From contig NZ_JAGQAZ010000001.1 in NCBI RefSeq assembly GCF_024345375.1, positions 1,088,661-1,152,660 of the forward strand: a DNA stretch of 64,000 nucleotides. The letters are read 5' to 3'. The notes under the pieces were generated by a model. That model ran no database searches. It was not told the DNA's origin and saw only the letters and a list, made by a program, of their open reading frames with translations. How positions within the stretch are numbered: position 1 is the first letter of the stretch; each line of letters begins with the position of its first letter. This document shows positions 45,897 through 49,540 of the stretch, piece by piece. The translations under genes and the position numbers were made by a program. Source of the stretch: Cyanobium sp. WAJ14-Wanaka. Lineage in GTDB: Bacteria; Cyanobacteriota; Cyanobacteriia; PCC-6307; Cyanobiaceae.

Positions 45897-46379
45897 ATGA
45901 ACCGCCGCGGACTATTGGCCAGCCTTAGTAGCGGCTTTGTCGCCCTCCTTGGCGGCGCCAAAGCGGCGGTGGCCGCCTCAAAAGCGGGCGATCCCGCCTG
46001 GCAACTCAGTGAAAGCCAATGGCGTAAGCGCCTTAGCCCGGAGGCCTTTGTGGTGCTGCGCCAGGAGGGCACCGAGCAACCCTTCAGCAGTGCCCTAAAC
46101 AACGAAAAAAAGGCTGGCACCTTTGTCTGCGCAGGTTGCAAATTGCCCCTGTTCAGCTCCAAGGCCAAATACAACAGCGGCACCGGCTGGCCCAGCTTCT
46201 GGGAACCCCTTGCTGGCGGAGTGGTCACCAAGCTGGATTTCAAACTGCTTCTGCCCCGCAGTGAATACCACTGCCGTCGCTGCGGCGGCCACCAGGGCCA
46301 CGTCTTTGATGACGGCCCCAAGCCAACGGGCAAGCGTTACTGCAACAACGGAGTGGCGCTGAACTTCATTGCCAGCTGA
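45897..46379 (+). CDS. msrB: Exported peptide-methionine (R)-S-oxide reductase
   Basis: Reduces the R-epimer of methionine sulfoxide. 160 aa. The N terminus MNRRGLLASLSSGFVALLGGAKAAVAA looks like a signal sequence with a twin-arginine pair, pointing to the periplasm or lumen. Zinc Cys pairs are at CAGC (78-81) and CRRC (126-129), and the catalytic Cys149 is in RYCNNGVALNF; the family more often has an NS dipeptide after this Cys region. It pairs functionally with the exported MsrA in this window. Confidence 0.93.
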   Translation: MNRRGLLASLSSGFVALLGGAKAAVAASKAGDPAWQLSESQWRKRLSPEAFVVLRQEGTEQPFSSALNNEKKAGTFVCAGCKLPLFSSKAKYNSGTGWPSFWEPLAGGVVTKLDFKLLLPRSEYHCRRCGGHQGHVFDDGPKPTGKRYCNNGVALNFIAS

Positions 46380-46397: not shown

Positions 46398-47684
46398 TTA
46401 GCCCGTGAATTCGGTGTTATAAGCCTCCTCGCCGTGGGCCTGGATGTCCATGCCCTGGCGCTCTTCCTGGTCGCTCACCCGCAGCGGTATGGCCAGGGCA
46501 ATCAACTTCAACACCACGTAGGTGCCCACCCCCACCCAGAGGGCCGTAAAGCCAGCGGCCTTCAGCTGAATCACCAGCAAGCCGGAGTTGCCCGCCAGCA
46601 GGCCATTGGCCCCGGCGGGATTGACCGATTGCAGGGCAAAGACACCAGTTAGCAGCATGCCCAGAAAGCCCGCCACCCCGTGGATGGGCAACACATCGAG
46701 GCTGTCATCCAAACCACTGCGATTTTTCCACTGCAGGGCATAGCTGCAAATCAAGGCCGCCATAAACCCGATCAACAACGCCCCGAGGGGGCTCACGAAA
46801 CCAGCGGCCGGGGTAATCGCCACCAGGCCCGCCACCGCGCCCGTGGCAACCCCCACCGCCGTGGGCTTGCCCCGCTGGATCGTTTCAATCACCATCCAGC
46901 CCACCGCCGCCGCCGCCGCGGCGGTATTGGTGGTGAGACAGGCCAAAGACGCCAGGTTGCCGGCGATCAGGGCGCTGCCGCCGTTGAAGCCAAACCAGCC
47001 AAACCAGAGCAAACCCGCACCGAGAAGGATGAAGGGCACGTTGTGGGGCGGGGCGCCATGGCCCGGATAGGAGCGGCGCCTGCCGATCACAGTGGCCGCC
47101 ACGGCAGCACCCACACCCGAGGCCATCTCAACCACCAGGCCACCGGCAAAATCCAGGGCGCCCAGGCCCTCCACCCCCAGGAAGCCCCCTGGACCCCAAA
47201 CCATGTGGGCCAGGGGCAGATAGATAAAGGTGCTCCACAGCACAACAAAGGCCAGCCAGGCGCGGAAGTTCATCCGCTCCACCACCGCCCCGGAGATCAG
47301 GGCTGGCGTGATGATCGCAAAAGTGAGCTGGAAAAAGGCCACCGCCCCATGGCTGAGCTGGCCATCGCCATAGGCCACAGACCAGTTGCTAAGGCCCGCC
47401 CACTGCAGACCGCCAATAAATGGAGCCGAAGGACCAGAGCCAGGGGAGAAGGCCAGGCTGTAGCCATACAAAACCCACAGCACGCTGACCAGGGCCATGG
47501 CCGAGAAGCTCATCACCATCGTGTTGAGCACGTTGCGGCTGCGCACAAAACCGGCGTAAAAGAGCGCCAATGCCGGCGTCATCATCAACACCAGGGCCGC
47601 GCACAACAGCACAAAGCCGTTGTTGGCGCTTTGTAAGGCTTGCACTACGGGGGCGGGAGCGAAAGAACCAAGCTGCGGGGCCAA
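46398..47684 (-). CDS. amt: Ammonium transporter (Amt family) with Glu at the first twin-His position
   Basis: Eleven-helix trimeric ammonium channel. 428 aa from the TTG at 47684; a GTG 13 codons in (47645) is an alternative. Family features include MMTPALALFYAGFVRSRNVLN, DFAGGLVVEMASG and GFLGMLLTGVFA. The pore twin-histidine pair is altered: the first position is Glu186 (GAG at 47127-47129, DFAGGLVVEM) while the second, His335 in VLPIHGVAG, is kept. A palindromic NtcA-like box lies just upstream. The gene converges with msrB. Confidence 0.93.
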   Translation of the reverse strand: MAPQLGSFAPAPVVQALQSANNGFVLLCAALVLMMTPALALFYAGFVRSRNVLNTMVMSFSAMALVSVLWVLYGYSLAFSPGSGPSAPFIGGLQWAGLSNWSVAYGDGQLSHGAVAFFQLTFAIITPALISGAVVERMNFRAWLAFVVLWSTFIYLPLAHMVWGPGGFLGVEGLGALDFAGGLVVEMASGVGAAVAATVIGRRRSYPGHGAPPHNVPFILLGAGLLWFGWFGFNGGSALIAGNLASLACLTTNTAAAAAAVGWMVIETIQRGKPTAVGVATGAVAGLVAITPAAGFVSPLGALLIGFMAALICSYALQWKNRSGLDDSLDVLPIHGVAGFLGMLLTGVFALQSVNPAGANGLLAGNSGLLVIQLKAAGFTALWVGVGTYVVLKLIALAIPLRVSDQEERQGMDIQAHGEEAYNTEFTG

Positions 47685-47697
47685 GGCGCAGCGTTTA

Positions 47698-47711
47698 GTA
47701 GCAGTCGCTAC
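47698..47711. promoter_or_regulatory. Candidate NtcA box upstream of amt
   Basis: GTA-N8-TAC (GTAGCAGTCGCTAC) inside the perfect palindrome TTTAGTAGC-AGTC-GCTACTAAA (47694-47715). This is the consensus of the cyanobacterial nitrogen regulator NtcA. It is only 14 bases from the TTG start, closer than the usual -41.5 placement, so either the GTG at 47645 is the true start or it acts otherwise. A second, imperfect GTA-N8-AAC lies about 25 bases further upstream on the minus strand. Confidence 0.6.

Positions 47712-47863: not shown

Positions 47864-49540
<1,677 letters not shown>

What the first reader, a model, noticed from the sequence alone, without database searches (positions are those of the whole stretch)
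46398..47684. Ammonium transporter with Glu in place of the first pore histidine
The raw codon at 47127-47129 reads GAG on the minus strand, giving DFAGGLVVEM where canonical AmtB has a histidine at this pore position; the second histidine (VLPIHG) is intact. Fungal Mep1/Mep3-type transporters carry a similar Glu-for-His change, and the twin-His pair is known to shape NH3/NH4+ transport. A natural E/H pore in a cyanobacterial Amt could shift pH dependence or transport mode, which matters for picocyanobacteria living on nanomolar ammonium.
Basis: partly seen in the sequence, partly recalled or inferred. Interest (0 to 1): 0.52.

Follow-up and report, generated by a model that had tools for sequence, protein, structure and literature searches.

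The report
Bacterial ammonium transporters with glutamate pore
A cyanobacterium carries, beside a normal ammonium transporter, a second copy in which one of the two pore histidines has been replaced for good by glutamate, and the same swap arose independently in two other bacterial groups, although the papers consulted describe it as natural only in fungi.

Summary
Codon GAG at window 47127-47129 (minus strand) encodes Glu186, aligned with AmtB His168; the second pore His (H335 = AmtB H318) and the other pore landmarks are intact. It is not an error: 37 of 37 family orthologues that cover the column have Glu, with both Glu codons in use. They form one clade (support 100/100), separate from His-type paralogues, one of which this genome also carries. 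A perfect NtcA box (GTAN8TAC) lies upstream of 35 of 36 orthologues, so the gene is probably induced by nitrogen starvation.

Following the few other Glu hits opened two more bacterial Glu clades (an actinobacterial family, 37 of 37 read; a Desulfosporosinus family, 28 of 28 read). The tree needs three gains, and one common origin is rejected. The passages read call natural Glu here a fungal (Mep1/Mep3) trait. Among 400 Cyanobiaceae-type genomes, the Glu gene never co-occurs with the salt-adaptation gene ggpS (0 of 38 against 124 of 362).

Most likely it is an active, electrogenic, higher-flux ammonium importer with looser cation selectivity, working beside a His/His copy. That transport mode is inferred from engineered AmtB H168E and yeast Mep1; nothing was measured.

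The parts
46398..47684 (-). Amt gene with Glu at the first pore His position (428 aa from TTG; real start possibly GTG 47643-47645)
   Evidence: PF00909 391.3 bits
47127..47129 (-). codon GAG, Glu186 = AmtB position 168
46680..46682 (-). codon of His335 = AmtB His318 (second pore His, kept); place computed from residue number
47698..47711 (-). GTAGCGACTGCTAC, perfect NtcA consensus GTAN8TAC
   Evidence: conserved upstream of 35 of 36 orthologues
47864..49498 (-). groEL, upstream neighbour (context only)
   Evidence: PF00118; same order in L033 by reading frames
45897..46379 (+). msrB-like SelR-domain protein, downstream neighbour (context only)
   Evidence: PF01641

Best explanation
This is a working ammonium transporter of the AmtB type whose first pore histidine has become glutamate and stayed so in one orthologous group of picocyanobacteria. 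SHOWN by sequence: the column, its fixation, the otherwise canonical pore, a separate clade, a co-resident His-type Amt in this genome and in 32 carriers read, the conserved NtcA box, and two more independent bacterial Glu clades. INFERRED: NtcA turns the gene on when nitrogen is short. NH4+ is bound and deprotonated at the canonical S1 site and Phe gate. The acidic side chain hydrates the mid-pore, so that proton plus NH3 pass electrogenically at higher flux and some hydrated NH4+ (and perhaps a little K+) passes directly. The His/His copy in the same cell keeps the selective mode, so the two divide the work as yeast Mep1/Mep3 and Mep2 do.
For: Glu in 37 of 37 orthologues with codons GAG 27, GAA 9; 17 AmtB pore landmarks other than H168 identical in 37 of 37 rows (rows include a few duplicates); NtcA box 35 of 36 against 6 of 32 AmtB-type His paralogues and 2 in the whole window; another PF00909 match in 37 of 38 carriers, read as His in the 32 carriers where a further copy was fetched; three independent gains. 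Engineered AmtB H168E is active, with large currents, and keeps part of its current in D2O (PMC9040831); Mep1 (Glu) is electrogenic, Mep2 (His) electroneutral (PMC7048316).
Against: No transport was measured. AmtB H168E has Km 12.87 against 0.8 mM (PMC9040831), a poor fit for a gene induced by nitrogen hunger unless other residues restore affinity. The same paper saw no K+ current for H168E in proteoliposomes; K+ passage showed only in yeast growth. Mep1 with His restored is inactive (PMC7048316), so context decides and analogy may mislead. Wild-type AmtB, with both His, is also described as electrogenic, so electrogenicity alone would not set the Glu copy apart. NtcA binding is inferred from a motif.
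Confidence: 0.6

Rival explanations
1. Glu is a near-equivalent of His at this place: transport is ordinary, the change was fixed by drift after duplication and is kept because reversal needs other changes.
For: Outside this column, no diagnostic residue is shared by all three Glu clades, so there is no common remodelling of the pore; AmtB H168E supports methylammonium transport where 13 of 14 other variants did not (PMC3647058, passage).
Against: Three independent gains, each fixed, beside His copies that stay His; in AmtB and Mep2 the change alters flux, Km, pH optimum and selectivity (PMC9040831, PMC7048316).
Confidence: 0.25
2. The Glu copy is mainly a sensor or regulator of ammonium (with P-II) and transports little.
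For: P-II genes lie beside the Glu gene in L091, L108 and L073, and cells keep another Amt.
Against: No P-II gene next to the cyanobacterial Glu gene in the window or L033; the pore landmarks are all kept; in yeast the His form Mep2 signals and the Glu forms do not (PMC7048316). P-II beside amt is the usual bacterial arrangement (recalled).
Confidence: 0.1
3. Artefact or recent import: a sequencing error, a decaying copy, or a gene taken from fungi.
For: One carrier (G261, L156) has the gene split between reading frames and one actinobacterial copy (G741) has a stop inside, so damaged copies or assembly errors exist.
Against: Open frames and Glu across eight genera; sister to His-type Amts of the same bacterial family with 99/95 support; closer to E. 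coli AmtB (317.6 bits) than to yeast Mep2 (215.1 bits). Fungal Mep1 itself was not at hand.
Confidence: 0.02

Closest known systems
E. coli AmtB and its solved Glu168 chain (PDB 2now_A)
   Same: Same family, all compared pore landmarks; the solved chain has the very same residue at the column
   Different: In AmtB the Glu was engineered; here it is natural, fixed in a clade, and sits in a paralogue kept beside a His/His copy
Fungal Mep1/Mep3-type permeases
   Same: Natural Glu in place of the first pore His, second His kept, alongside a His/His relative (Mep2) in the same cell (PMC9040831, PMC7048316, passages)
   Different: Bacterial sequence nearer AmtB than Mep2; independent origin within bacterial families; no direct comparison with Mep1 sequence was possible
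Picocyanobacterial amt2 of PMC9361551
   Same: A second ammonium permease found mostly in freshwater strains (68/132 genomes, 54/67 freshwater; passage)
   Different: The passages do not say whether amt2 is the Glu copy or the AmtB-type His copy; the pore residue is not mentioned there
AmtB-type His/His paralogue of the same genome (L002, G000 C1:849213-850436)
   Same: Nearest relative within the genome, about 53-55% identical
   Different: His at the column; no NtcA box in the 700 nt upstream examined

Membership tests
Amt/Mep/Rh family (PF00909) | Matches the family profile over its length | tested here: met
   391.3 bits, profile 2-399 of 399, cut-off 23.2
Amt/Mep/Rh family (PF00909) | Twin-His: first pore histidine | tested here: not met
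   Glu186 at AmtB H168
Amt/Mep/Rh family (PF00909) | Twin-His: second pore histidine | tested here: met
   His335 at AmtB H318, 37 of 37 rows
Amt/Mep/Rh family (PF00909) | Phe gate and S1 site (F107, F215, W148, D160, S219) | tested here: met
   Identical in 37 of 37 rows
Amt/Mep/Rh family (PF00909) | Ammonium transport | not testable with these tools
   Needs expression and uptake assays
Fungal Mep1/Mep3 type | Glu at the first pore His, His at the second | tested here: met
Fungal Mep1/Mep3 type | Common descent with fungal Mep1 | tested here: inconclusive
   Nested among bacterial His-type Amts and nearer AmtB than Mep2, but no Mep1 sequence was at hand
Fungal Mep1/Mep3 type | Electrogenic transport with shifted pH optimum | not testable with these tools
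   Needs electrophysiology

The most novel reading that the evidence does not exclude
Bacteria evolved a Mep1-like Glu pore at least three times, in lineages that also hold a His/His Amt, as a division of labour between a tight, selective importer and a fast, electrogenic one that lets some K+ through. Because such a pore would be K+-permeable and K+-sensitive, it is affordable only where outside K+ is low, which would explain why in picocyanobacteria it is found only in genomes without the salt-adaptation gene ggpS. [quoted passage not shown]
Probability: 0.35. Interest if true: 0.78.

Novelty: new variant of a known kind. Interest (0 to 1): 0.6.

Why it matters
The twin-His motif is treated as nearly invariant in this family, with Glu as a fungal exception (PMC3647058, PMC7048316). 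Three bacterial clades with fixed Glu, in genomes that mostly hold another Amt, give replicated natural material to ask what the first pore His is for, whether it sets selectivity against K+, and why cells keep both kinds. The cyanobacterial clade also ties a pore residue to nitrogen control and, by a marker gene, to the salinity divide of picocyanobacteria.

Tried and rejected
Lone variant or error: rejected, 37 of 37 orthologues. Misaligned column: rejected. Viral source: 39 of 39 IMG/VR Amts that cover the column have His, best identity 45%. One origin of all Glu rows: rejected, AU p 0.0002; actinobacterial plus Desulfosporosinus p 0.002, cyanobacterial plus actinobacterial p 0.00002; the third pair was not tested, and the groups were named after trees had been seen. 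A shared set of compensating residues: none besides the site itself in all three clades. P-II gene next to the cyanobacterial copy: not seen in the window or L033. NtcA box at His-type paralogues with up to 700 nt upstream: still 6 of 32, but most had under 600 nt and one only 165 nt. A structure model was not run, because solved AmtB, including a Glu168 chain, is a close template. A first tree lacked the actinobacterial Glu rows, which I had dropped by mistake as duplicates; one search includes them.

Full report
OBSERVATION. The minus-strand ORF 46398-47684 translates to 428 residues with DFAGGLVVEMASG and VLPIHG and matches PF00909 with 391.3 bits. Residue 186 is Glu, codon at 47127-47129. 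Aligned with E. coli AmtB, E186 falls on H168 and H335 on H318. The best PDB hit, 2now_A (319.9 bits), is an AmtB chain with Glu at this column, visible in the printed alignment; that the entry is the H168E mutant is recalled. AmtB residues F31, Y32, Q104, F107, I110, L114, Y140, W148, D160, A162, V167, L208, W212, F215, S219, T273 and H318 are identical in 37 of 37 rows of the clade (the rows include the own locus twice and one other genome twice). Besides H168, five sites differ strongly between the clade and 50 His-type cyanobacterial rows: AmtB 9, 27, 231, 271 and 321.

FIXED IN A CLADE. The genome (2.14 Mb in 7 contigs, 99.93% complete) has two PF00909 genes, the window gene and a His-type copy elsewhere. 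Of 400 genomes sampled from its family, 38 carry the orthologue at 74-100% identity, in 8 of 59 genera; three are partial or split copies (G268, G261, G319). Glu is present in 37 of 37 that cover the column; G268 does not cover it. Codons are GAG 27 and GAA 9 in the 36 loci counted. In 37 of 38 carriers there is at least one more PF00909 match; the exception, G144, is 73% complete. In the 32 carriers where at least one further copy was fetched over the column, every copy read there has His; five others have only unread fragments, and some third copies were not fetched. The named carrier is Cyanobium usitatum Tous (L033), which by its identical match table is the same assembly as G106.

REGULATION. 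GTAGCGACTGCTAC at 47698-47711 fits the NtcA consensus GTAN8TAC, centred near -41.5 in canonical promoters (PMC3898017, start of abstract in the listing). Such a box is upstream of 35 of 36 orthologues (36 of 37, which counts one genome twice), mostly 77-143 nt before residue 18, against 6 of 32 AmtB-type His paralogues, 0 of 52 actinobacterial and 0 of 28 Desulfosporosinus-family Glu genes, and 2 places in the 64-kb window. The order groES-groEL-amt-msrB-gpmI of the window recurs in L033 by my reading of its frames.

TWO MORE BACTERIAL CLADES. Among 80 loci related to the window protein (the best 80 of a capped scan), 93 of 97 aligned copies that cover the column have His and 4 have Glu: L033, L073 (Desulfosporosinus nitroreducens), L091 and L108 (MAGs filed under Actinomycetota). 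In the family of L091's genome, 37 of 151 sampled genomes carry a copy of at least 73% identity and 37 of 37 have Glu; one of them (G741) has an in-frame stop. 36 of these 37 genomes show a second match; His-type copies read from the family have His in 12 of 12, five of them from Glu carriers, besides L243 and L238. In an order-level sample 15 of 15 newly fetched copies have Glu. In the family of L073's genome, 28 of 45 genomes carry a copy of at least 71% identity and 28 of 28 read have Glu; a 29th, a fragment in G849, was not read. 27 of these 28 genomes show a second match, but a His copy was read in only two of them (G656, L237; G816, where the two genes lie side by side) and in two non-carriers (L331, L332). 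P-II genes lie beside the Glu gene in L091, L108 and L073. The Desulfosporosinus-family clade also has Gly for Ser219 in 27 of 27 rows; the actinobacterial copies, Glu and His alike, mostly have Phe for Trp148.

INDEPENDENT ORIGINS. With the column removed, a 91-row tree gives each Glu clade 100/100. The cyanobacterial one is sister to His-type Amts of its own family (99/95), the actinobacterial one to His-type copies of its family (100/98), and the third groups with Bacillus-type His copies (100/94). The state changes three times. Holding all Glu rows together is rejected (p 0.0002). The only site diagnostic of all three clades is this one. These rows were gathered by following Glu hits, so they say nothing of how common Glu is in bacteria at large.

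HABITAT. In the 400-genome sample 124 score over the cut-off: 0 of 38 Glu carriers against 124 of 362 others (Fisher p 4e-7). Within the mixed genus g10 it is 0 of 8 against 8 of 17 (p 0.026), taking the 25 genomes of g10 with a match. Relatedness inflates the first p value; some carriers are incomplete; many genomes lack both genes, so lack of ggpS is no proof of fresh water; and I assume that searches drew the same 400, since unmatched genomes are not all listed. That L091 and L108 come from a reservoir and a lake is my reading of their isolate labels, told by no tool. The third clade is not known to be planktonic.

MECHANISM. Engineered AmtB H168E gave 22.28 nA at a 200 mM ammonium pulse, Km 12.87 against 0.8 mM, about a quarter of its current in D2O where wild type gave none, no K+ current in proteoliposomes, yet K+-dependent growth in yeast; the authors read this as transporter and channel modes side by side (PMC9040831, passages and Discussion). 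Yeast Mep1 (Glu) is electrogenic and Mep2 (His) electroneutral; Mep2 H194E has higher Vmax and a shifted pH optimum, and Mep1 with His restored is inactive (PMC7048316, passages); the optimum is pH 6 for Mep1 and pH 4 for Mep2 (PMC10794816, passage). By analogy the window protein should import fast and electrogenically with looser selectivity. A high Km suits nitrogen hunger badly, so either other residues of the clade restore affinity or the gene serves ammonium pulses while the His/His copy scavenges. This is open.

NOVELTY. PMC3647058 calls fungal Glu the only common natural variant, and PMC7048316 names fungal Mep1-like proteins as the exception (passages). The paper searches listed no title or abstract start that reports a natural bacterial Glu Amt. 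I read passages of eight papers (PMC9040831, PMC10433425, PMC3647058, PMC10794816, PMC7048316, PMC9361551, PMC11851481, PMC6603209), one section of the first, and none whole. Most subscription journals are not held, so an earlier report is possible.

Noticed in passing
upstream of 9 of 36 Glu-type and 5 of 32 His-type cyanobacterial amt genes, e.g. L145, L146, L147, L150: A palindrome GTTCANNNTGAAC lies between the NtcA box and the start in some Glu-type genes; it is not in the window. A second regulator site is possible.
   Followed up: partly
L303-L329 (family of Desulfosporosinus nitroreducens): 27 of 27 rows of this Glu clade also have Gly in place of Ser219 of the ammonium-binding S1 site, a second unusual change in the same pore.
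   Followed up: no
L060, L108: Two MAG records titled Bifidobacterium breve carry Amts that group with picocyanobacterial and small-genome actinobacterial copies; the titles look wrong (inference).
   Followed up: no
L156 (G261), L254 (G741): Glu-type genes that are broken: one split between reading frames, one with an in-frame stop; decay or assembly error.
   Followed up: no
L198-L236: 39 IMG/VR contigs encode Amts, mostly about 30% identical to the window protein; all 39 have His at the first pore column.
   Followed up: partly
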